Notes under the pieces: generated by a model | What the model was told of the DNA's origin: nothing | Databases searched by the model: none | What the model saw: the letters and a program-made list of their open reading frames with translations, nothing else | Made by a program: the position numbers and the translations under genes | In this document: one piece after another, positions 51,076-63,783 of the stretch | How the letters are laid out: every line of letters begins with the position of its first letter | How positions within the stretch are numbered: position 1 is the first letter of the stretch | From: Gemmatimonadales bacterium | GTDB lineage: Bacteria; Gemmatimonadota; Glassbacteria; GWA2-58-10 | DNA length: 64,000 nt | NCBI GenBank assembly: GCA_024278175.1 | Contig: JAJRTS010000002.1 | Location: forward strand, 1 to 64,000 | Reading direction: 5' to 3'

Positions 51076-52287
51076 TTAGAACCCGAAGCTCAAGGTGAAG
51101 AAGTTATCGGCGCTCAGGCGGCCCTTGTTGCGATAGGCATAGTTGAAAGTAATCGCCTTGCCGCCAATATCACGCCTGACACCACCACCAATGCTCAGAC
51201 CGCGCAAGGTGGGATTATCGCCCAGGTAGGCGTAACCGAAATCGTCCGCTGATCTTGTGTACTCATCGGACTGGATCAGCCAGCCCGCGCGGAAGGCCGC
51301 GGACATGAACGGGGTGAAGTTGTAGTTGATTTCCGTGCCGGTAGCGTAGCTGATGGGCGTGTTGCTATTGCGCCACAGCTCGGTCGATACCAGCCAGTTA
51401 GTCTTTTCGGAAGTCAACAGGTTATACGACAGCGCCAGCTTAACCACCGTCGGCAGACGGTAGGTGTGGGTCTGGCGGTAGGCCCAGCGGTTTTCCCTGC
51501 GGGGCAGGGCGTTGGGATCCGTGCTGTAGTCGACATAACCCGAGGGGATATTGCCGCCGATGTCCTCGGGCCCGACCTCGTAGAGCAGGTTGGGACCGGA
51601 CATGGTGATATTGGTACCGAGGTTCTGGATCGCGAAAGCGAAACGGATTTCACGGTCGGCCAGCTCGGTGTGGTAGATCGCGCCCGCATCGATAGCGAAA
51701 GCGCTGCCGCCGACGTTCCCGAACATGTCCTGGTGGACATATTTGAGGTTCATCCCGGCAACGAAACGATCGCTGAAGGTGTAGGCGAACGAACCACCCG
51801 CCTGGAAATCGTAGGCATTGAACGTGCGTCCGATTCCCTGGGGTGAGTTGAACGTGGTGATTTCCATTTCAGGTACGTCGAGATATCCGAAGAACCCACC
51901 AACCACCAGGTTGCCGTCGCCAATAGGCACGGCCGCCGCAGCGTAGCTGTAGGTGAGGTCCAGGGTATAATCGACAACCGTCAGCATCACTTCCTTCTGC
52001 TGCAGGAAACCCAGTCCGGCTGGGTTCCACCACATTGAGCTGATGCCGTCGGTGACGGCCGAATAGGCGCTACCCATGCCGATACCTCTGGCCCCGACAG
52101 GAATCTCGAGGAACTCAGCGGCTCTGACACCGACAAAGGAAGCATTATCCGGCCGTCCTTGGGAGAGATACTTATCCAGGCCGGTATACTCCTGCCGCGT
52201 GACACCCTGTGCCATCAAAGGCACGGCGACGAACGACACGAGTACGCCGAGGATAATCAAGGCGCGTGTGGCCGTTTTGGTGAACAT
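51076..52287 (-). CDS. PorV/PorQ-like outer-membrane beta-barrel protein
   Basis: The 403-residue protein has a signal peptide ending PLMAQG. It has the PorV/PorQ pattern of the FadL-like barrel family: LEIPVGARGIGMGSAYSAV, GISSMWWNPAGLGFL, and many alternating strands to the C-terminal LSFGF. In type IX secretion PorV carries cargo from the translocon to the surface. Two starts are possible: ATG 52287 (GGAGG, and the signal peptide begins there) and an in-frame ATG pair at 52344 (AAGGAG) that would add 19 residues. The gene is last in an operon after the T9SS-like surface protein, the probable cargo. Confidence 0.87.
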   Translation of the reverse strand: MFTKTATRALIILGVLVSFVAVPLMAQGVTRQEYTGLDKYLSQGRPDNASFVGVRAAEFLEIPVGARGIGMGSAYSAVTDGISSMWWNPAGLGFLQQKEVMLTVVDYTLDLTYSYAAAAVPIGDGNLVVGGFFGYLDVPEMEITTFNSPQGIGRTFNAYDFQAGGSFAYTFSDRFVAGMNLKYVHQDMFGNVGGSAFAIDAGAIYHTELADREIRFAFAIQNLGTNITMSGPNLLYEVGPEDIGGNIPSGYVDYSTDPNALPRRENRWAYRQTHTYRLPTVVKLALSYNLLTSEKTNWLVSTELWRNSNTPISYATGTEINYNFTPFMSAAFRAGWLIQSDEYTRSADDFGYAYLGDNPTLRGLSIGGGVRRDIGGKAITFNYAYRNKGRLSADNFFTLSFGF

Positions 52288-52362
52288 AAACAACCTCCAT
52301 TTGGTCTCAAGGGAGAGAAAATTTTCCGAGTAAGCCGTCATCATCTTGTACTCCTTATTAAT

Positions 52363-55300
52363 TTAGTTGATGACGTAGAACTTACCGGTATGTGTCTCTC
52401 CCCTCTCGTCCGTCACGTGGTAAAAGTACAGTCCGCTTGCCACGGTCTGTCCGAAACGGTTCTGCAGGTTCCAGGCTTCGGTTCCGCCATGGTTGTCCCA
52501 GCCGGTGAACTCGCGTGGTTCTCCCGTGGAACTGAGCCTGTCCCAGTCTTTATAGTTGCCCCAGCCAAAGCGGTTGGCGCCGATATGGTTGAGCACGTTG
52601 ACCAGGTGTCCGCCCAGCGAGTAAATCCGGATCGTGCAGCGGGCGGGTAAATTGACAAACTCGATCCGGCGTTGGCTGGGCGAGAGATCGAGGGCCGAAG
52701 AGGCCATGTACGGGTTCGGCACGACCATGACCTTGCTCAGGTCGGCGTCTTCCGGGTTCATCGACATGGGATTGATCAATATCTTCCACTTGTCGCCCGG
52801 GAAGATCGGCTCTGGAATCTGGTTGAATGTATCACCGTCCCAGCTGCCGTATGCCGTAATCACCGTCATAACTGTACCGGAGGCCGGCATTGCGCTGAGA
52901 TTGGTGAACTTCCAGGCCTGCCCGTTAACATAGAGGTAGAAGTCCTCCGTATTATCGGCCGGGACTGTCTCGGCCAGCAGGATGCTGCGTTCACTCTGCG
53001 GAACCAGCACGTTGCTGGGGCCGCCCCATTTACGGCCCGCGTCTCCGGTAATATCCGCATACGTAGCGCCACCGACGATAAAGCCCCAGTTCTCATCATC
53101 GATATACGGGCTGAAGGGGATCGCTTTGCCGTGGGTCAGGTCCTGAACCGTACAGGTCAGACCACCGCCGGAAGTGCCCCAGGTGATTTTGAATTCACCG
53201 GCCCTGGTGTAGGCGGCATTTGAGTTGCCGCTGTTGTGGACCAGTCCGCCCGAGCCTTCACCCCAGCGGTAAGTGGCAAAAGAGACATCACCACCGTAAC
53301 CGCCCAGGTCCATCTGGGTCTGCATGGTCCTGACAGTCCGCTGGTTGATCGACAAACCGACCGAGTAAGTAATACCGTCAGTGCCCATCCCGCCGGAAAA
53401 GCCGAGGCTCTTGAGATAGGAGCCACCGCGGCCGTTGACCATGATGTTCTGCGCCATGGGATCGATAAGGTTCCCTGACGCGTCGGTCAGAGCCACTGTC
53501 CTGGAGCCGGCTATGCCACCGTGCGGTCCCATGCCGGTCACGGCCAGATAAGCCGTCTGTTCCGTCGTCAACCTTTCATTGTTGACGATGTCGACAGAGA
53601 TGTCAGTGAATGGCTCAAGGTACTTGGGCGTTTCGGTAATCAGTCCCCCGGAACCGGTAAGCGGCACCGTTTCGATCGACAGCGGTTCACCTGTTCCCGC
53701 CCATCCCACACTGGCCAGCTTGGCCTCGCGGAAATTGCTGGCGTTGCTGCGGGGTTGCACGGTATAGAGCTGCGCGCCCAGGCGGTTCCAGAGCTTGCCG
53801 CTGGCGGGATCGGGCAGGCTGAAATATTGCTGCTCGCCCGGATCGTAGTTGTTGTCGTAAGGCACGAGAGCGTACCATACGCGCATGCCGTTGTTCATCC
53901 GGAACAGCGGGTTGTCGCTGTCACGCGTGTCCGTATAGAAGAACGCCAGGTCGCCGCCGCTGATGCTGCCCTCCCAGATCAACTCGGAGTGCGAGTCGCT
54001 GGGTCCGACAAACGAGCGGTAGAGGCGATAGCCTTCGAAATCGTACTCCCGGTACCGGCCGTCGGGATCGAGGGTGGGGTTGTCCTGCAGAAAGTAATAA
54101 TACGCGTCCGGCGTGTTGACGTTGACGTCGCTCCAGGTGATCGTCACCTGTTTCTCGCCGGGGATAATCGTCAGCGGCGGCGGAGCCGGCGTCTCGGGCA
54201 GGATAAATCCACCCGCGGAGACAATCTCGGCCACGTCCATGTAGGCCTCGACCGCGCTCAACTGGTCCTGCACTTCGGGATTGTCTATGTTAGGCAGATC
54301 CGAAGGCGGGAAAGTGAACGGCGGATTCTTCGGCGGCACGAACGCAATCACCGCGTCCAGGCTGAAGCTGTCGCGCGGCGCCACGTCTTTGAACTCACCC
54401 CAGAAGTTATAGGAGTTGTTCGCGTTGCGGGTACCCCACCACCACTGGTCGTAACGCGGCTCGTCGGGCAGCGGCACGCCGGGCCATCCGTACACCGGCC
54501 CGCCGGTCCAGGGGTTGGTGTAGCCTGGATAGAACGGCGCGGTCGCATCGTAGCGGCCGTTGCCATAGCGATAAGCGCGGCCGTTGGGCCGTCCGCCCTC
54601 GAGCACCTCTTCCGGCTCCATCAATCCGTACTCGGTGGACCAGCCATGGGCCAGAGAGTTGGTGAAAGTAAGGGTCTGACCGTTAAGCTCGGGCATGCGT
54701 AGCGGCATCATGCCCATCATCGCCGGCGGGGTGGTAAAAGAATTCTCCACACCGTCACGGTCGGCCTGGACGATGATCTGGCGCGGGAACAGATAAGCCC
54801 ACGCCTCGTCACGGCCGCCGATCCTGAAGCCGTTGGCCGTGGTATAGACCAACTGCATTCCCTGCCAGATCTGACCGGTTTCGGCCGTGCCGGCGATCTT
54901 GGCCAGAAAGTCAGCGTTGGGGTTCCACTTGTTGTACTCACTCATCTGGCGGATGAACACATGCATATAAGCCATGTTGTTGCTTTCCGCGAAATTGAGG
55001 AAGTAGAACTGGTACTCGATCGATGCTCCCATGGTCCTGCCGTCATCGGAAAAACAATCGCCCTGGCTGGCGACGATAGTCTCGGCGCCGTGGAAGATCG
55101 GGGCGCCGGCCAGAGTGCGGCCTTCGCGGAAACGCGCCGGCCACTCGGCAACGTCCCCGGGATCCGAGGATGCGTAGACCCGGTTGACCGAGATGCGGGT
55201 GGAGGCATCATACATGTCCTCGCCGGCCGCGTACAGGGCGGCGAGCTGGTCATAGTCTTCCAGGGCGCAGAGCTCTCCCTGGAAACGGCCACCCCTGGAG

Positions 55301-55587
55301 AGGTTGGCCGCGGTGTCATCGGCCACGCCATCGCCGTTGGTGTCGCGGGCGATATTCAGACCCCAGTTCCAGCGTCCGGCGGTATAGGTGTTACCCGAGC
55401 CGCGCGGGAACTGGTGAGGCCAGGGCGAGCTCCGCAAGGGGCCGCCATAGCTCAGGGCTACCGTTAAGCCGATATTGTTTCCCGCGGACTGGACGGCCTG
55501 TTTCCATTCAGCCATAGCGCTGGAAACAAAGACGACCAGCAGGGCGACAACCGCCAGCTTGATCGGATTGATAAATTTGTGAAGCAT
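52363..55587 (-). CDS. Large exported protein with T9SS/FlgD-like C-terminal domain
   Basis: The 1074-residue protein has a signal peptide ending SSAMA. Its body is of unknown type, rich in Trp, Tyr and Pro (for example YPGYTNPWTGGPVYGWPG), with a fibronectin-III-like part near 480-600 (EKQVTITWSDVNVNTPDAY). The C-terminal 100 residues (MVVPNPYMASSALDLSPSQR, IRIYSLGGHLVNVL, VASGLYFYHVT, GKFYVIN) match the type A sorting/FlgD-Ig-like domain of T9SS cargo. It lies between a TonB receptor and a PorV-like gene, a combination seen in several FCB phyla. It may bind a saccharide or another ligand on the surface in the way SusD does, but it is not SusD-like in sequence. Confidence 0.84.
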   Translation of the reverse strand: MLHKFINPIKLAVVALLVVFVSSAMAEWKQAVQSAGNNIGLTVALSYGGPLRSSPWPHQFPRGSGNTYTAGRWNWGLNIARDTNGDGVADDTAANLSRGGRFQGELCALEDYDQLAALYAAGEDMYDASTRISVNRVYASSDPGDVAEWPARFREGRTLAGAPIFHGAETIVASQGDCFSDDGRTMGASIEYQFYFLNFAESNNMAYMHVFIRQMSEYNKWNPNADFLAKIAGTAETGQIWQGMQLVYTTANGFRIGGRDEAWAYLFPRQIIVQADRDGVENSFTTPPAMMGMMPLRMPELNGQTLTFTNSLAHGWSTEYGLMEPEEVLEGGRPNGRAYRYGNGRYDATAPFYPGYTNPWTGGPVYGWPGVPLPDEPRYDQWWWGTRNANNSYNFWGEFKDVAPRDSFSLDAVIAFVPPKNPPFTFPPSDLPNIDNPEVQDQLSAVEAYMDVAEIVSAGGFILPETPAPPPLTIIPGEKQVTITWSDVNVNTPDAYYYFLQDNPTLDPDGRYREYDFEGYRLYRSFVGPSDSHSELIWEGSISGGDLAFFYTDTRDSDNPLFRMNNGMRVWYALVPYDNNYDPGEQQYFSLPDPASGKLWNRLGAQLYTVQPRSNASNFREAKLASVGWAGTGEPLSIETVPLTGSGGLITETPKYLEPFTDISVDIVNNERLTTEQTAYLAVTGMGPHGGIAGSRTVALTDASGNLIDPMAQNIMVNGRGGSYLKSLGFSGGMGTDGITYSVGLSINQRTVRTMQTQMDLGGYGGDVSFATYRWGEGSGGLVHNSGNSNAAYTRAGEFKITWGTSGGGLTCTVQDLTHGKAIPFSPYIDDENWGFIVGGATYADITGDAGRKWGGPSNVLVPQSERSILLAETVPADNTEDFYLYVNGQAWKFTNLSAMPASGTVMTVITAYGSWDGDTFNQIPEPIFPGDKWKILINPMSMNPEDADLSKVMVVPNPYMASSALDLSPSQRRIEFVNLPARCTIRIYSLGGHLVNVLNHIGANRFGWGNYKDWDRLSSTGEPREFTGWDNHGGTEAWNLQNRFGQTVASGLYFYHVTDERGETHTGKFYVIN

Positions 55588-55647: not shown

Positions 55648-58600
55648 TTAGAAATTGAACTCGGCACCGAAACGAATCTGCCTGGCGATACCATACTGGC
55701 TCTTGTCCATCGTGGACTGCATCACACGATAGGCGATGTTGCCCTTGGCCTGTTCCTCGAGAGAGAGGACTCCGTCCTGGTTGAAGTCCGCATTGAACCA
55801 GACCTTGGTTTCTTTGGGCGCGTTGTCGTCCCAGACTATCGGAACGCCGCCGCCGGCTGCCCTGTAGTAACCCTCGTAGTTCAGGCCGGAGGGGTACGGA
55901 GTGGGCAGCTTTTTGTTGAACAGGTTGAATATCTCGCTGAAGAAGCTGAGACGATAGGCACGGCCCAGACGGAACTCCTTGGTGAAACGGAGGTCCATGC
56001 TGTAGTCCCAGCGTCCGCGGAAGTAGTTCAAACCGCCGATGGGACGTCCATTGCGCCTGGTCAGCCAGGAGACATTTTGAGCCGCGTTCATAAAATAAGT
56101 GGATCCGCCGGCGACAATCCTGTCGTAGGCGGGCTGGCCACTGCTCAACCGGAACAGTACGAATGCGCGCACGTTCTTCAGGATCGGGTTAAAGATCGTG
56201 CCGGCCTGGAAGTCCTCGGGGAAGAGGTAGTTCAGGGTAGCGGTCAACTTGTGAGTCACATCGCCGTTGATCGGCCGCAACTCATCGGGCGGGGAGAATA
56301 CCGCGCCGGTTGACGGATCCATGAAAATATCCCATCCGCTGGTAGAGCTGTAGTCACTACCGGTGGTACGGGAGAACTGCATGGTGTACATCAGGTTGTA
56401 AGAGAAGTTGTTGCTGAAACGTTTGCGCATGGTAAAGTCCATGCCCTTGATGTTACCGCTGTCCCTGTTGGTGTAGCCGTTGGTCCATGTACGAATACGG
56501 CGTTCTTCGCGCCACTGGTAGTAGTCGCGGAAGAACTCCTTGCGGGCCACGTTACCCATCACATCACGGTAATAACCCACGATGTCGAGGACCATGTCGT
56601 CGCTCAACAGGTAGCTCAGGCCGCCCTCAAACGCGTCCGTGCGGCTGTACTGCAGGCCGCCGGGGTTGCCGCCGTTGAAGATGTAGCTCATGCTGGGCAG
56701 CTGTTTGAACACGCCGTAGCTGAAGCGCAATTGGCTCTTGTCGGTGACAGGGAAGCCGACGTCGAAACGGGGCGACCACTCGCTGAGGGTTTTGGCGAAA
56801 TAATTCTCACCCCAGTCATCGCCATATTTGAAGCCCCAGTTGTCGACCGGGTCGAACCTGTCGTAGCGCAGGCCATAGTTGAACACGAAATCGCCGAGGT
56901 CGGTGCGGTTCTGGGCGTAGGCGCTCAGAATCGTGGGCTCGTAGTTGAACTCGTTGTTCACGTCACGGTTGCGGTTCATGTTGTGCAGCTCGTACTTCTG
57001 GTTCTCGAAGTCCGAGTACTGTACACCGATCTTGGCCCTGTTGTAGCGGTTGAGCTGGAAGTCGATGTCGGCCTTGTAGTTGTTCTGCCATTCGCGGCTG
57101 TAGAAGTAGCTCAGCCAGTAGAGGTCGTTGCCCCTGATGAGCCTGAACGGATACTCAACATCCCAGGTGCGTTCCCACGGTCCCTGGCCGTTGGGGTACC
57201 AGCGGCGGGCTTCGGGCGAATCTTCCAGCGGCAGCTTCATCCCGGGAAAAGTCTCGACCTCGAACGGGATGTCGTGCAGCGACCAGCCGCCAAAGGTAGT
57301 GTTTTCGCTGCGGACGTAATTGTCCCTCAGGCTCGAATTCGTGATGTCCTGAGTTTTCATTCTGGTGTAGCGGAATATCAATGAACCGCTCTTGTCCGCG
57401 CTGCGGTAGAAGTCCCAGTCGGCACCGAGCAGCAGGTTGGTGGTGCGGGTCCTTCTGGCATAGGACTGCGGGATGAAAACAGTCGTATCCGGAGCATCAT
57501 ACTCCCAGGCCCGCAGGGGCAGGGTGCTGATAGTAGCAATGCCGTCGGTGAAGTAGTCCCCGTTATTATTGACGGGATAGCTGTTCTGGACCCGGCTGTA
57601 GTTGATCGATCCCAGCAGTTTCAGACCCTGGATCGGGTAGTAAGTCACCTTGCTGGTGGCAAGGCTCCTGTCGCCCCAGTTGCCCGGAACGCGCACAGGG
57701 TTGCCGGGATTGAACAGCGCAGCGCTCTTGCCGGTCTTGCCGGCGTAGAACTCGCGGCCTGCCTTGAAGTCTTCCAGCGAGAACGCGGGGTTCTGGTTGC
57801 CGAACACCGGGTCGTTACGCACGGCGTAGTTCAGGCGGCTGATGAATTGCTGATTGACTCCCCGGAAGCCCTCGTCGCCGTGCGTTGGCGTCCGGTCGGC
57901 CTGGCCCTGAATTTCTCCGGAACCCTGGATGTAAAGGTTGGGAATACCCGGCACGGGGCCACCGACAGATGCGGTCATCTGGTTGTAGCCGTAGTCGGCG
58001 GTGCGGGGGTTGGTCTCGTCGGTGGTGTACCTGAGGTTACCGCGCCATTGCGCGCCGCCTTCCTTGGTTACGATATTGACCACACCGGACTGGGCGTTGC
58101 CGTACTCGGCCTGGAACCCGCCGGTGATGATGTCAACCTGTTCCACCGCGTTGGCGGAGAACTCAAGAGGAGAAGCATCTTCCGCCTTGGAGCCCAGTTC
58201 CTGCTCCCAGACCCAGCCGTTACCACTGCGGAACGGATCGGCGGTGTAGTTACGCACGGCCACGCCGTCGACAATCATCACTTCCTCGCCGAGGCGGCCG
58301 CCGCGGATACGCAGGCCACGGCTGAGAGCGCCGGGACCGCCGGTCTGCACACCGGCCTCGAGGAGCATCATGTCCTCGAGCTTGGTGGCGGGTATCTCGG
58401 CGATTTTCCCAGCGGTCAGTCTCTGCTTACTGACCGTGTTGTCCCTGGGCATCAGCACATCGGATTCACCTTGGACAGTGATACCCTCAAGCTGAACCAC
58501 GGTGGAACTCAGGTTGGCGTCAACCGTGGTGGTCTGCCCGGAGAGCAGCAACTGGCCACCGACAGTCGTCTTCTGATAGCCGGTGAACGTGAAGGTGATA

Positions 58601-58839
58601 TCGCGCCGTCCCGGCGGGACATTCAAAATAAAATAGTAACCATCCGAGTTGGTTACGTTGCCCAGCCTGGTGCCTTCAATCACTACCTGGGCACCCTGCA
58701 ATGGTTCGCCCGTGTCGGCATCCCGGACCACGCCCTCCACCTTCGAGGTGTTGAGCTGCGCCAGGGCCGGCAGAGCCCAAAGCATTGCCGAAAGCAGCAA
58801 TATGCCGGACCTTCCGAAAAGACGTTTGTTAATCGACAT
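55648..58839 (-). CDS. TonB-dependent receptor with carboxypeptidase-like regulatory domain
   Basis: The 1063-residue outer-membrane receptor has a signal peptide ending ALAQ, an N-terminal carboxypeptidase-regulatory-like beta-sandwich (about 33-110: VEGVVRDADTGEPLQGAQVV, SDGYYFILNVPPG), a plug (about 125-260: LRIRGGRLGEEVMIVDGVAV, NAQSGVVNIVTKEGG) and a 22-stranded barrel ending in Phe (GAEFNF). It takes up a large ligand with energy from TonB. No SusD gene is present; the exported protein downstream takes that place. GGAGG precedes the ATG. A 692-nt region with tandem hairpin units lies upstream. Confidence 0.95.
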   Translation of the reverse strand: MSINKRLFGRSGILLLSAMLWALPALAQLNTSKVEGVVRDADTGEPLQGAQVVIEGTRLGNVTNSDGYYFILNVPPGRRDITFTFTGYQKTTVGGQLLLSGQTTTVDANLSSTVVQLEGITVQGESDVLMPRDNTVSKQRLTAGKIAEIPATKLEDMMLLEAGVQTGGPGALSRGLRIRGGRLGEEVMIVDGVAVRNYTADPFRSGNGWVWEQELGSKAEDASPLEFSANAVEQVDIITGGFQAEYGNAQSGVVNIVTKEGGAQWRGNLRYTTDETNPRTADYGYNQMTASVGGPVPGIPNLYIQGSGEIQGQADRTPTHGDEGFRGVNQQFISRLNYAVRNDPVFGNQNPAFSLEDFKAGREFYAGKTGKSAALFNPGNPVRVPGNWGDRSLATSKVTYYPIQGLKLLGSINYSRVQNSYPVNNNGDYFTDGIATISTLPLRAWEYDAPDTTVFIPQSYARRTRTTNLLLGADWDFYRSADKSGSLIFRYTRMKTQDITNSSLRDNYVRSENTTFGGWSLHDIPFEVETFPGMKLPLEDSPEARRWYPNGQGPWERTWDVEYPFRLIRGNDLYWLSYFYSREWQNNYKADIDFQLNRYNRAKIGVQYSDFENQKYELHNMNRNRDVNNEFNYEPTILSAYAQNRTDLGDFVFNYGLRYDRFDPVDNWGFKYGDDWGENYFAKTLSEWSPRFDVGFPVTDKSQLRFSYGVFKQLPSMSYIFNGGNPGGLQYSRTDAFEGGLSYLLSDDMVLDIVGYYRDVMGNVARKEFFRDYYQWREERRIRTWTNGYTNRDSGNIKGMDFTMRKRFSNNFSYNLMYTMQFSRTTGSDYSSTSGWDIFMDPSTGAVFSPPDELRPINGDVTHKLTATLNYLFPEDFQAGTIFNPILKNVRAFVLFRLSSGQPAYDRIVAGGSTYFMNAAQNVSWLTRRNGRPIGGLNYFRGRWDYSMDLRFTKEFRLGRAYRLSFFSEIFNLFNKKLPTPYPSGLNYEGYYRAAGGGVPIVWDDNAPKETKVWFNADFNQDGVLSLEEQAKGNIAYRVMQSTMDKSQYGIARQIRFGAEFNF

Positions 58840-58937: not shown

Positions 58938-59120
58938 TTCGCCTTCCTTCGGTGGCTTTGCTACATTGACCCTCCTTTCTCAGTATTGAGATTTATCGGT
59001 AAGGCCGGAGTACGGGAGCGTTCCCCGGGAACTCCGGCGATGAATCAGGACGGCTTATTGTGATTAAGAGCGCGTTCATGAACAATATCGACCCACGAGT
59101 ACCGGAATTGTAGGCTGAAC

Positions 59121-59466
59121 GCAACAATCCCCAAGGGTTGCGTTTGTGGCTCATGCCGGAGGATTCTTGGCGGAATTGACGGCATGGGCCTTTTAAATTT
59201 CTTTGCAAGCTTTATTTTTTCCGCAGGAACTCAAGTCGCATTTATGTGATTGTGCGCCGTTTTGTAAATAAATGTTGACATTCGTTTCTCAAGCTATTAC
59301 ATTGACGCAGCAATCCCCAAGGGTTGCGTTTGTGGCCCATGCCGGAGGATTCTTGGCGGAATTGACGGCATGGGCCTTTTAAGCTTCTTTGCAAGCTTTA
59401 TTTTTCCAGGCGATTGCGTTTGTGGCTCATACCGGAGGATTCTTGGCGGAACTGACGGCATGGGCC
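59121..59466. repeat. Tandem hairpin units between the ROK gene and the TonB receptor operon
   Basis: Two nearly identical 100-bp units (59121-59220 and 59307-59406) and a third partial unit (59412-59466) are present. Each contains a hairpin with arms GGCCCATGCCG and CGGCATGGGCC (perfect in unit 2) around a conserved 21-nt loop with GAGGATTCTTGGCGG. Units 1 and 2 also share CAATCCCCAAGGGTTGCG and the tail CTTTGCAAGCTTTATTTTT. The 86 nt between units 1 and 2 are unique. The region would be transcribed as the 3' end of the ROK transcript or the leader of the receptor operon. I know no riboswitch of this form. Confidence 0.85.
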
Positions 59467-59531
59467 GGTTGTATTTGCGCTTCAGTGGGCTATGTTCTGG
59501 ATTCCTTCTCCTGCTCTGTTATTTTTTTCAC

Positions 59532-60779
59532 TCAGGCGCAAACACTTTCCTGTCTGGATGTTTTGCTCTTCGATTTCCTCGCCCTGGCCACTGGCTGCCT
59601 CCCGTCGCCGTATTGCCCAAGCATGTGCTGCAGGACGAGGGCGCGTGCACCGCTGAACGTAGGATTATGCAAGGAGCACGGTACAATCAGGTCCGGCAGG
59701 TGCTCCATCGGGTGCGGCGCCCTGCTGCGAAGCTGGTCCAGTAGCTCGGGATAAATCAGTTTCCAGGCTTTGACGAGGTGGCCGGCCAGAATGATCCGCT
59801 CCGGGTCGAGTCCGTTGTTGATACTGGCCAGGCCCGCTCCCAGCCATTTCGCGGTTTCCCGCAAGGCCTTGCGCGCAGCGGAATCTCCCTCGACAGCCAT
59901 ATCGATCAGTCTGATCGCCTGGCTGCCGAGATCGTCTTCCCTCGGGGCACCGGTAAGCTTGCAATAACAGCCGACAATACCATCGAACGAGGCCTTGTCC
60001 TCCCAGGTAGCGCCTTTGGAGGGGGCTTCGTAATCCCCGTCGATCTCTACCCCCCCCCCCCCCGAGTAGAAATAACCATCCATAAACCGGGCTCCGTTAT
60101 AGAGCTTCCCGTGAATTACCGTGCCGCTGCCCACGCCTTCGCAGACCAGAACATACACGAAATCGTTCAGGCCCTTGACCTCGTCGGCGAACCAAAGCTC
60201 GGCTATCGCACCTGCCTTGGCGTCATTTTCAACAAATATAGGACACTCGAAATGGCGCTCGACCGGTTTGCGGCAGGAAACGTTTTTCCAGCCCAGGGAG
60301 TTGTGCCAGAAGATCACGCCGGTCTCGGAATTAAGCACCGCGGGTACGATCACGCTTACGCCGGCAAGGGGCTGCGTGAATTCAGCGACCATTTCCGCGA
60401 GTCTGGTAGCGCAGAGATCGAAGAATTTGTCGGCGTCGTTGGGGAAAATTTCGATTTGTTGTTGGGAAAGGACTCCGCCTGAAAGGTCGCAGACCGACAG
60501 GGTGGCGTGGCGAAGGGTTACATCAATCGATCCGTAAATCCGGTAATCCGGGCTGACCTTCAGGTTGACCGGCTTGCGGCCCAGCGCGTTGGCATCGTCA
60601 CGGCTGGCCTCGTAAATTGCGCCTTCGCCGATCAGTTCGCTGGTAATCTTCGATACCGTACTCTGGTTAAGTCCGGTTATCCGCGAGAGTTTTACCCGCG
60701 AAATCGGACCATGGGTAATGATATTATTAAATACAGCCGAGCGGTTGAGTGCTCGGATTTTTTTATGAGCATGAGGCAT
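59532..60779 (-). CDS. ROK-family transcriptional regulator with a G14 tract
   Basis: The 415-residue protein has an N-terminal winged helix-turn-helix (about 5-75: ISRVKLSRITGLNQSTVSKI) and a ROK domain (about 85-395: FVENDAKAGAIAELWF, VCEGVGSGTVIHGKLYNGARF, LDPERIILAGHLVKAW). ROK repressors of the NagC/Mlc/XylR group bind a sugar and leave their operators. The usual zinc-binding His and Cys residues after the NGA motif are missing; in their place are SGGGG, encoded by 14 G in a row, then VEIDGDYEAPSKG. It is next to the receptor operon on the same strand and divergent from the Asp-box lipoprotein, both plausible targets. Confidence 0.88.
   Translation of the reverse strand: MPHAHKKIRALNRSAVFNNIITHGPISRVKLSRITGLNQSTVSKITSELIGEGAIYEASRDDANALGRKPVNLKVSPDYRIYGSIDVTLRHATLSVCDLSGGVLSQQQIEIFPNDADKFFDLCATRLAEMVAEFTQPLAGVSVIVPAVLNSETGVIFWHNSLGWKNVSCRKPVERHFECPIFVENDAKAGAIAELWFADEVKGLNDFVYVLVCEGVGSGTVIHGKLYNGARFMDGYFYSGGGGVEIDGDYEAPSKGATWEDKASFDGIVGCYCKLTGAPREDDLGSQAIRLIDMAVEGDSAARKALRETAKWLGAGLASINNGLDPERIILAGHLVKAWKLIYPELLDQLRSRAPHPMEHLPDLIVPCSLHNPTFSGARALVLQHMLGQYGDGRQPVARARKSKSKTSRQESVCA
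60050..60063 (-). repeat. G14 homopolymer in the ROK coding strand
   Basis: Fourteen uninterrupted C on the plus strand are G in the coding strand and give Ser-Gly-Gly-Gly-Gly-Val. At the present length the frame is open through both halves of the ROK domain. One base more or less would break the protein about residue 240. It could be a phase-variation tract or a length error of sequencing. Confidence 0.9.
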
Positions 60780-60932
60780 TTACACCTGCTAACCGGACAA
60801 GTTAGATTCGTGTAAGCGGACTCCATTCATCAGTAAGGGCCGTCAATAAGAACTGGCTTTGGATCCTTCACCCGGCATTACCCGGCCGGGCAAAAAGTAA
60901 GGGGGCAGCAGCTTGAAATGGTTTGCGCTTGC

Positions 60933-60961
60933 TATAATATTCTTTCGGAAAGAATGTTATA
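60933..60961. promoter_or_regulatory. 29-nt palindrome, candidate operator between divergent genes
   Basis: TATAATATTCTTTC, one central G and GAAAGAATGTTATA form 14-bp arms with one mismatch. It lies about 155 nt before the ROK start and 432 nt before the divergent Asp-box lipoprotein gene, in an AT-rich stretch. Palindromes of this size with A/T-rich ends suit ROK repressors, so autoregulation is the simplest idea. The left arm contains a TATAAT-like sequence. Confidence 0.6.
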
Positions 60962-61161
60962 GATATATTATCATTTAATAGCGGTAATGTCAAGCGATCA
61001 AAACAAAAAAATATTAAACAGGGGAATTGGAAAGTAATTGTCGAACGTCGTTCAGGCAACCCTGAAGAAGGGTTTTTAAAATGATTAAACTGTAAAACTC
61101 CTTGCTAATATATAAGTTGCATGGTCTCTTTTTCTCAGGTTGCAATTGATGCGTGACGATT

Positions 61162-61392: not shown

Positions 61393-63783
61393 TTGACCAG
61401 AACTTTGTCAAAAAAAATGCGGTCCATCCTGGTGGCTGTTTTGCTCTCAATGGCGCTTGCCGGCTGCGGCCGGACAACACCGGAAACACGGACAGAGCAG
61501 GTTGCGGCGAATGCTGTAAGCTGGCGCGTACTGGGTCCGGGAGGGGGGGGCGCGCAGTACCTTTCGACAATTAACCCGCAGGACCCCGATCATGTGTTCG
61601 TCCGCTGCGACATGACCGGCGTTTACGTAACCACCGACGGTGGAAAGAAATGGCGCATGTTTAACCTTCGCACCGTGGTCCGCGATTTCGAGTTCGATCC
61701 CTCCAATCCAAACACTGCCTATGCCTCCAACAGCGGAGTTTACCGCACCGATGACCGGGGAGATTCTTGGCGGCTGGTCTATCCCCGGCCCGCGGATATC
61801 GCCGAAGAGATGATGACGGGCGACCATGCAGATCAGTATTTCCTCACCACCGATGGCCGGAAAATCCGCACGATACCCCAGGTGCTGGTCGATCCGGACG
61901 ATAGCGACAAACTCTATATCGGCGATGTCCGTCCCGATGGGATCCGTGTGATGCACAGCCCGGACGGCGGCCAGAGCTGGCGGTTGGTGGCCACTGTGGG
62001 AGGTTCCGGTGTGCTCAACATTTTCCCCGGCGCCTGGTACGGCAGCCCCGCGGAAATAATCTTGTTCGCAGCTGAAGCGGGCTGGCGAATCAATGTCGAA
62101 TCGGGCAAGGTGGAAAAGATAACGCTGCCCGCAGAGATGATACGGGCGGCCGAGGGTGGAAGCGCACAGGGCAAGGCTGTTTTCTACCTGGCAGTCAACA
62201 TCAGCGAAAAAAACGGTAAGCTCGCTGGCGGCGTGTATCGCTCCGATGACCTCGGCCAAAATTGGCGGCAAGTGATCGGCGGGCTGGCGGCGGACTGGAA
62301 GAGCGGCATGCGCGTACCCAGGTTTTATGCTCTGGCGGTCTGCCAGAGCGCTCCGGACGTGGCTTATTTGTCCTGCGGCTACTACCCGCGGCCGCTGACC
62401 GATGGTCAAATCGAGCGTCAGTTCGGGATCTTCAAAACAGTCGATGGCGGCCGGAACTGGAGCTGGGTATACCGCGCCACCAGCGAGGAGATGCTCAGCA
62501 AAAACCACAAGGCGGCCTGGATGATGGAAGACTACGGGCCGGAGTGGGGCGAGTACCCGCTGAGCCTGGGAGTCAGCCCCACCGATCCGGATATCTGCTG
62601 GGCCAATGATTGGGGCACCACCTACCGTACGTTAGACGGCGGCGGGCTCTGGGAGCAGGTCTACACCGAAAGGATGCCCGATGGCTCGTGGCGTTCCCGC
62701 GGCCTGGATGTGACCACCAATTACGGTATCCATTTTGATCCGTTCGATCCGAAGCACGTGTTTATTTCCTATACCGATATCGGCGCGTTCCACAGTTTCA
62801 ACGGTGGCCAGAGCTGGGTCCATTCAATCGAAGGCGTGCCGTCCTCCTGGCGCAACACCTGTTACTGGATGGTGTTCGACCCGGACGTAAAAGGCCGTGC
62901 CTGGGGAGCCTGGGGGGCGGGCCACGATCTGCCCCGGCCCAAGATGTTCCGCAGCGGGAACTTCGACCGTTACGTGGGCGGGGTTACTGTCTCCGGCGAC
63001 GCCGCCCGCAGTTGGCGCCGGAGCAATGAGGGCCTACCGCCCAATACGGTATGTACCCATATCCTGCTCGACCCCGACAGCCCGGTCGATGCGCGTACAT
63101 TATATGTCTGCGGGTTCGGCAAGGGCGTATTCAGGAGCACCGATGGCGGGCGGAGCTGGACGCTGAAAAACAGCGGGATCGGAGAGAACCTCAATGCCTG
63201 GCGGATCACCCGTACTCCGGACGGGATGCTGTATCTGCTGGTGGCCCGTGGGCTGGAACAGGGCCGGGTGGTCGATGGCGCGATGTACGTCAGCGGCGAC
63301 GGGGCCGAAAGCTGGCGGCCGCTGGCCATGCCGCCCGGCACAAACGCTCCCAACGATCTGGTTTACGATCCCACGGAACCGGCCCGGATGTACCTGAGCT
63401 GCTGGCCGGATACCGCCGGCGGGGCCGAGACCGGCGGCGGACTGTGGCGCAGCGAGGACGCCGGGGCTAGCTGGAAGCCGGTGTTCCGGCAGGATGCTCA
63501 CGTGTACGCCGCGGCTGTCGATCCGGAGAACCCGAACACGGTGATTATCAACACGTTCGACAGCGCGGCGTTTCGCTCCGATGACCGTGGCGAAAGTTGG
63601 CGGCGGCTGGAGGGTTACACTTTCAAGTGGGGTCACCGCCCGGTGTTCGACATCCACAACCCCGGCATGATCTACCTGACCACGTTCGGCGGCAGCGTGT
63701 TTTACGGCCCGGCTGGCGGCGTGCCCGGCGCGTTCGAGGACATTCTGGACCCAACCTGGCAGAAGTGGTACGGCAAGTACTGA
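61393..63783 (+). CDS. Asp-box (BNR/GH74-like) lipoprotein
   Basis: The 796-residue paralogue of the dockerin protein at 35575 has the lipobox MALAGC instead of a dockerin. The propeller region starts with SWRVLGPGGGGAQYLSTINP and has about twelve Asp boxes (TTDGGKKW, SPDGGQSW, TVDGGRNW, SFNGGQSW, STDGGRSW, SDDRGESW and others), ending with LEGYTFKWGHRPVFDIHNPG, which is nearly shared with the paralogue. A GH74-like glucan-cleaving role is inferred. TTG is the start: GGAGG lies 6 nt before it, while the next ATG (eight codons later) has no site. It is divergent from the ROK gene and followed by a terminator. Confidence 0.85.
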   Translation: MTRTLSKKMRSILVAVLLSMALAGCGRTTPETRTEQVAANAVSWRVLGPGGGGAQYLSTINPQDPDHVFVRCDMTGVYVTTDGGKKWRMFNLRTVVRDFEFDPSNPNTAYASNSGVYRTDDRGDSWRLVYPRPADIAEEMMTGDHADQYFLTTDGRKIRTIPQVLVDPDDSDKLYIGDVRPDGIRVMHSPDGGQSWRLVATVGGSGVLNIFPGAWYGSPAEIILFAAEAGWRINVESGKVEKITLPAEMIRAAEGGSAQGKAVFYLAVNISEKNGKLAGGVYRSDDLGQNWRQVIGGLAADWKSGMRVPRFYALAVCQSAPDVAYLSCGYYPRPLTDGQIERQFGIFKTVDGGRNWSWVYRATSEEMLSKNHKAAWMMEDYGPEWGEYPLSLGVSPTDPDICWANDWGTTYRTLDGGGLWEQVYTERMPDGSWRSRGLDVTTNYGIHFDPFDPKHVFISYTDIGAFHSFNGGQSWVHSIEGVPSSWRNTCYWMVFDPDVKGRAWGAWGAGHDLPRPKMFRSGNFDRYVGGVTVSGDAARSWRRSNEGLPPNTVCTHILLDPDSPVDARTLYVCGFGKGVFRSTDGGRSWTLKNSGIGENLNAWRITRTPDGMLYLLVARGLEQGRVVDGAMYVSGDGAESWRPLAMPPGTNAPNDLVYDPTEPARMYLSCWPDTAGGAETGGGLWRSEDAGASWKPVFRQDAHVYAAAVDPENPNTVIINTFDSAAFRSDDRGESWRRLEGYTFKWGHRPVFDIHNPGMIYLTTFGGSVFYGPAGGVPGAFEDILDPTWQKWYGKY

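What the first reader, a model, noticed from the sequence alone, without database searches (positions are those of the whole stretch)
59532..60779. ROK regulator with a 14-G coding tract, a possible on/off switch for a surface uptake operon
The sequence shows 14 G in a row inside the ROK reading frame, in place of the usual zinc-ligand segment. The frame is open at this length and would be lost by a one-base slip. Known phase-variable loci use such tracts in surface or regulatory genes. The neighbours are a TonB receptor operon and a surface glycanase-like gene, which would make a switchable regulator meaningful. That it switches is inference.
Basis: partly seen in the sequence, partly recalled or inferred. 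Interest (0 to 1): 0.72.

Follow-up and report, generated by a model that had tools for sequence, protein, structure and literature searches.

The report
Recent 14-G run inside ROK regulator
A gene regulator of the ROK family in an uncultured bacterium carries a slip-prone run of 14 G's that its closest relatives lack; slipping would switch the regulator off, but nothing available here shows that it does.

Summary
In detail: 14 C on the + strand at 60050-60063 (14 G in the gene), inside an intact 415-aa ROK regulator of a Candidatus Glassbacteria-like genome. Loss of one G gives a stop at once (243 aa); gain of one gives a 371-aa hybrid. It is the longest G run of the assembly. Two points of the reading are wrong or weakened. 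The tract does not replace the zinc segment: zinc Cys ligands and His are already missing in all four family-level relatives, none of which has the tract. And the tract is not conserved: the congener (88% identical) has TCG GGG ATT GTG there, two codons shorter. G runs in this genome are mostly intergenic and none of 18 is shared with the 10 of the sister species, unlike Campylobacter, where most poly-G lies in ORFs. Mismatch-repair genes are present. The locus is otherwise conserved: divergent BNR/sortilin-like gene, ROK, TonB operon, with a palindrome (60939-60955) at the divergent promoters, also in two relatives. Most likely: a recent, frameshift-prone tract in a flexible loop of a selected, probably autoregulatory repressor. 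Length heterogeneity is plausible; an adaptive switch is unproven and not favoured. Read-level counts would decide.

The parts
60050..60063 (-). G14 homopolymer in frame (Ser239-Gly4-Val244)
   Evidence: longest G run of the assembly; ortholog in G001 reads TCG GGG ATT GTG
59532..60779 (-). ROK-family transcriptional regulator, 415 aa
   Evidence: Pfam ROK PF00480 113 bits, cut-off 22.9; full-length fold match to 1z05 and 5f7q; dN/dS 0.20 against G001
60594..60758 (-). N-terminal winged helix-turn-helix region (about aa 8-62)
   Evidence: weak Pfam MarR/HTH matches below cut-off; predicted helices 2-23, 28-35, 39-52 and strand 55-58; aligns with DNA-bound ROK repressor Lmo0178 5f7q
60000..60050 (-). 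degenerate former zinc loop (aa 244-260, VEIDGDYEAPSKGATWE), no Cys ligands
   Evidence: alignment with CxCGxxGC-bearing relatives; model pLDDT < 50 over aa 239-249
60939..60955 (.). palindrome ATTCTTTCGGAAAGAAT, candidate operator
   Evidence: only site within 3 mismatches in the window, only locus genome-wide within 1 mismatch of its 15-base core, present at the same place in G001 and as TATATATTCTTgtagaAAGAATATATA in G002
60965..60993 (-). sigma-70-like promoter TTGACA-17-TAATAT towards ROK
   Evidence: same hexamers just upstream of the palindrome in G001
60913..60940 (+). weaker promoter-like site TTGAAA-16-TAATAT towards the BNR gene, overlapping the palindrome
   Evidence: consensus match only
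61393..63783 (+). divergent 796-aa BNR/sortilin-repeat protein, possible lipoprotein
   Evidence: Pfam Sortilin-Vps10 and BNR; orthologs at the same place in G001 and G002
55648..58839 (-). TonB-dependent receptor downstream of ROK, same strand
   Evidence: Pfam CarboxypepD_reg and Plug; orthologs in G001, G002, G004
52363..55587 (-). 1074-aa protein of the operon, no Pfam family
   Evidence: ortholog in G001 and G004
51076..52344 (-). outer-membrane barrel, PorV/FadL-like (below Pfam cut-offs)
   Evidence: ortholog in G001

Best explanation
The tract is a recent, species-level mononucleotide expansion in a flexible loop of a probably autoregulated, zinc-free ROK repressor. The repressor probably binds the palindrome at 60939-60955, at two divergent promoters, and so controls its own gene, possibly the BNR/sortilin-like gene, and by read-through perhaps the TonB operon. 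Replication slippage at G14 would make frame loss unusually frequent: minus one gives a 243-aa product lacking the C-terminal part, plus one a 371-aa hybrid; reversals would restore the frame, and steps of three only change the number of glycines. It therefore acts at least as a mutational weak point that would give some cells derepressed target genes. Shown: tract, frame, slip products, absence in relatives, purifying selection, conserved locus and palindrome. Inferred: actual slippage, operator function, derepression, any benefit.
For: Same-genus ortholog at 88% identity has no tract and is two codons shorter; G002-G004 also lack it. Gene under purifying selection, dN/dS 0.20 (0.13 before, 0.34 after the tract). 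Tract and next residues (239-249) have pLDDT below 50 in an otherwise confident model (85.2), so glycine number is likely tolerated. G runs >=10: 18 in this genome and 10 in G001, no shared locus; codon-usage scoring puts at most 3 of the 18 inside predicted genes. MutS and MutL domains are present, so no sign of a mutator genome. Conserved palindrome with promoter next to it in G000 and G001 and a variant in G002; BNR-ROK-TonB order kept in G002.
Against: No reads: length heterogeneity is not shown, and the true length could differ from 14. The change from the relatives' sequence needs replacement of ATT as well as added G's, so simple slippage from a short G run is not the whole story. Only one congener was available, so 'recent' rests on one close comparison plus three distant ones.
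Confidence: 0.6

Rival explanations
1. Adaptive phase-variable switch: the tract is maintained by selection so that subpopulations lose the ROK repressor reversibly and express the TonB/BNR surface locus constitutively.
For: Tract twice the 7-G cut-off used for Campylobacter (PMC6321876); in frame, with an immediate stop on a -1 slip; local regulator of a surface uptake locus.
Against: Absent in the congener and family; G runs of this genome are mainly intergenic and none is shared with the congener, whereas 82% of poly-G tracts lie in ORFs in Campylobacter. A full-text search for 'ROK family' with 'phase variation' gave three papers, none of which names a phase-variable ROK gene in title or abstract.
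Confidence: 0.2
2. Sequencing or assembly artefact: the true sequence is a shorter, less G-rich stretch, or a G run of other length.
For: Draft assembly in 113 contigs; homopolymers are error-prone; some other genomes of the phylum have G12 runs close to contig ends, as artefacts would give. Both coding runs replace non-G bases of the relative (ROK: ATT; L006: AAAACC).
Against: The run is internal to a 156,653-base contig with conserved, in-frame sequence on both sides; an insertion of random length would keep the frame only one time in three.
Confidence: 0.15
3. The tract was selected at protein level: Gly4 is a functional flexible linker at the former zinc-stabilised loop.
For: Low-confidence loop at the former zinc site.
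Against: Relatives lack both zinc ligands and Gly4, so no linker is needed; all four codons are GGG although GGG is only 19% of glycine codons in the window.
Confidence: 0.05

Closest known systems
ROK-family repressors (Mlc 1z6r, Mlc homolog 1z05, Lmo0178 5f7q)
   Same: HTH plus ROK domain matched over the full length; a palindrome at its own promoter
   Different: no ExGH and no CxCGxxGC zinc motif; Gly4 loop from a G14 tract
Zinc-free ROK proteins such as Fusobacterium nucleatum NanK (PMC5458393)
   Same: ROK fold without the cysteine zinc motif
   Different: that protein is a kinase and keeps the His; here the His is lost too and the protein carries an HTH
Poly-G phase-variable genes of Campylobacter (PMC6321876)
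   Same: poly-G inside an ORF, a slip truncates the product
   Different: not present in the sister species, the genome's other runs are mostly intergenic, switching not shown

Membership tests
ROK transcriptional regulator | ROK domain (Pfam PF00480 above cut-off) | tested here: met
   113 bits against 22.9; fold matches 1z05, 5f7q
ROK transcriptional regulator | N-terminal DNA-binding winged HTH | tested here: met
   predicted helices and full-length alignment to DNA-bound 5f7q; individual Pfam HTH models below cut-off
ROK transcriptional regulator | ExGH sugar motif and CxCGxxGC zinc motif | tested here: not met
   DGYFYS and EAPSKGATWE; the zinc cysteines and His are also missing in G001-G004. 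Natural zinc-free ROK proteins are published (PMC5458393), so it is filed only as a zinc-free ROK-domain regulator
Simple-repeat phase-variable gene | mononucleotide G tract of 7 or more inside an ORF | tested here: met
   G14; cut-off from PMC6321876
Simple-repeat phase-variable gene | one-base slip destroys the product | tested here: met
   243 or 371 aa
Simple-repeat phase-variable gene | tract shared by homologs or strains with varying length | tested here: inconclusive
   no tract in the congener or in G002-G004, which counts against it; no other strain of the same species was available
Simple-repeat phase-variable gene | length variation within a population and change of expression | not testable with these tools
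   no reads, no expression data

The most novel reading that the evidence does not exclude
A real phase-variable switch in a zinc-free ROK repressor, with G14 turning a dedicated surface-uptake locus between regulated and constitutive states in an uncultured Glassbacteria-type bacterium, arisen within one species.
Probability: 0.18. Interest if true: 0.55.

Novelty: new member of a known kind. Interest (0 to 1): 0.33.

Why it matters
If the tract does vary, a local regulator rather than a surface gene has been made switchable in an uncultured lineage, and the comparison with the congener would show how such a locus arises within one species. If it does not, it is a useful example that a long in-frame homopolymer alone is not evidence of a switch.

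Tried and rejected
Zinc-segment replacement by the tract: rejected, relatives without the tract also lack the zinc ligands. Mutator genome: MutS_I and DNA_mis_repair domains are both found. Shared tract positions between the two species: none. Known RNA element in the window: no Rfam match at gathering scores. The first genome-contig scan with the single protein found nothing; the alignment query found Glassbacteria relatives but no new congener. The codon-usage scan of the G001 runs stopped on an N and was not repeated. Paper search for ROK with phase variation gave three papers, none naming a phase-variable ROK gene in title or abstract.

Full report
Observation. The + strand has 14 C at 60050-60063; the gene on the - strand therefore reads TCG GGG GGG GGG GGG GTA. 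The ORF 59532-60779(-) is 415 aa and intact. One G less brings the TAG of GTAGAG into frame at once (243 aa); one more gives 371 aa; changes of three keep the frame. The assembly (4.18 Mb, 113 contigs) holds 18 G runs of 10 or more; this is the longest, the next being 12. Runs of 14 or more are expected 0.26 times genome-wide under an order-1 model and 0.005-0.013 times under order 2-4 models of the window. Under synonymous-codon shuffling of the window's genes 2 of 500 shuffles reach 14 or more, so it is unusual but not impossible as composition.

What the gene is. Pfam gives ROK at 113 bits. The AlphaFold2 model (mean pLDDT 85.2) matches ROK repressors 1z05 and DNA-bound Lmo0178 5f7q along the whole length. 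The nearest relatives in named collections are Candidatus Glassbacteria. In the alignment, distant homologs have EFGH...CxCGxxGCWE; the window protein and its family relatives G001-G004 have none of the cysteines and no His at that place. Loss of the zinc site thus precedes the tract. Zinc-free ROK proteins are known (PMC5458393).

The tract is young. The same-genus ortholog (88% identity) reads TCG GGG ATT GTG GAG; the window reads TCG GGG GGG GGG GGG GTA GAG. G002 (53%), G003 and G004 have no tract either. So the window's lineage gained two codons and lost the ATT. dN/dS between G000 and G001 is 0.20 over the gene, 0.13 before and 0.34 after the tract; the later value rests on low dS and is not taken as relaxed constraint. 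The gene has therefore mostly been kept functional. Residues 239-249, the tract and what follows it, are the only internal stretch of the model below pLDDT 50, which suggests a tolerant loop (inference).

Genome-wide context. G001 has 10 runs of 10 or more; G002-G005 have 0 to 3. No tract locus of G000 matches a tract locus of G001. By codon-usage scoring at most three of the 18 runs of G000 lie within predicted genes (this one, a secreted cupredoxin-like gene on contig C32, and one at the extreme 5' end of an ORF on C63); the rest lie between predicted genes. In Campylobacter 82% of poly-G tracts lie in ORFs (PMC6321876). Long G runs here look like weakly constrained intergenic features that seldom enter genes. 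MutS and MutL domains are present.

Locus. The order BNR/sortilin-like gene, divergent ROK, then TonB receptor is the same in G001 and G002; ROK-TonB adjacency is also seen in G004. Between the divergent genes lies ATTCTTTCGGAAAGAAT (60939-60955), found once within three mismatches in the window and at one locus in the genome within one mismatch of its core; the same palindrome is at the same place in G001 and a spaced variant in G002. It lies directly downstream of a TTGACA-17-TAATAT promoter towards ROK in G000 and G001 and overlaps a weaker site towards the BNR gene. This is the expected place for an autoregulatory operator; binding is inferred.

Mechanism and verdict. The most economical account is a recent, frameshift-prone expansion in a loop of a functional, probably autoregulatory repressor. 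Slippage would produce cells without a full-length repressor and hence altered expression of the uptake locus. Whether this happens often, and whether it is selected, cannot be told without reads or strains. Adaptive switching is given 0.2, artefact 0.15.

Noticed in passing
window 59119-59219, 59305-59405, 59395-59495: Three copies of a ~100-nt element with a strong hairpin (GGCCCATGCCG...CGGCATGGGCC; RNA fold z -4.25 for one copy) between ROK and the TonB receptor; two copies at the same place in G001. Elsewhere in the phylum sample only single 1-2-mismatch matches to the core, about as many as chance would give; no Rfam family. Two copies can also be read in one small ORF (MPSVPPRILRYEPQTQ...MPSIPPRILRHGPQTQ), 90 nt apart in both genomes.
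   Followed up: partly
L011 (G000:C64) 1501-1511: G11 run 6 nt upstream of the ATG of a 402-aa ParB_N + N6_N4 DNA methylase, at the Shine-Dalgarno place; no match in G001 or G002. A candidate for a variable-expression locus.
   Followed up: partly
L009 (G000:C62) 1501-1510: G10 run 6 nt upstream of the ATG of a 498-aa secreted zinc carboxypeptidase (Peptidase_M14).
   Followed up: partly
L006 (G000:C32) 1501-1510: G10 run inside a 225-aa secreted cupredoxin-like gene; the G001 ortholog has CGGAAAACCGGC at the same length, i.e. non-G bases replaced by G without an indel there.
   Followed up: partly
genome G035: One genome of the phylum has 35 G runs of exactly 12, far above all others sampled; genome biology or platform artefact.
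   Followed up: no
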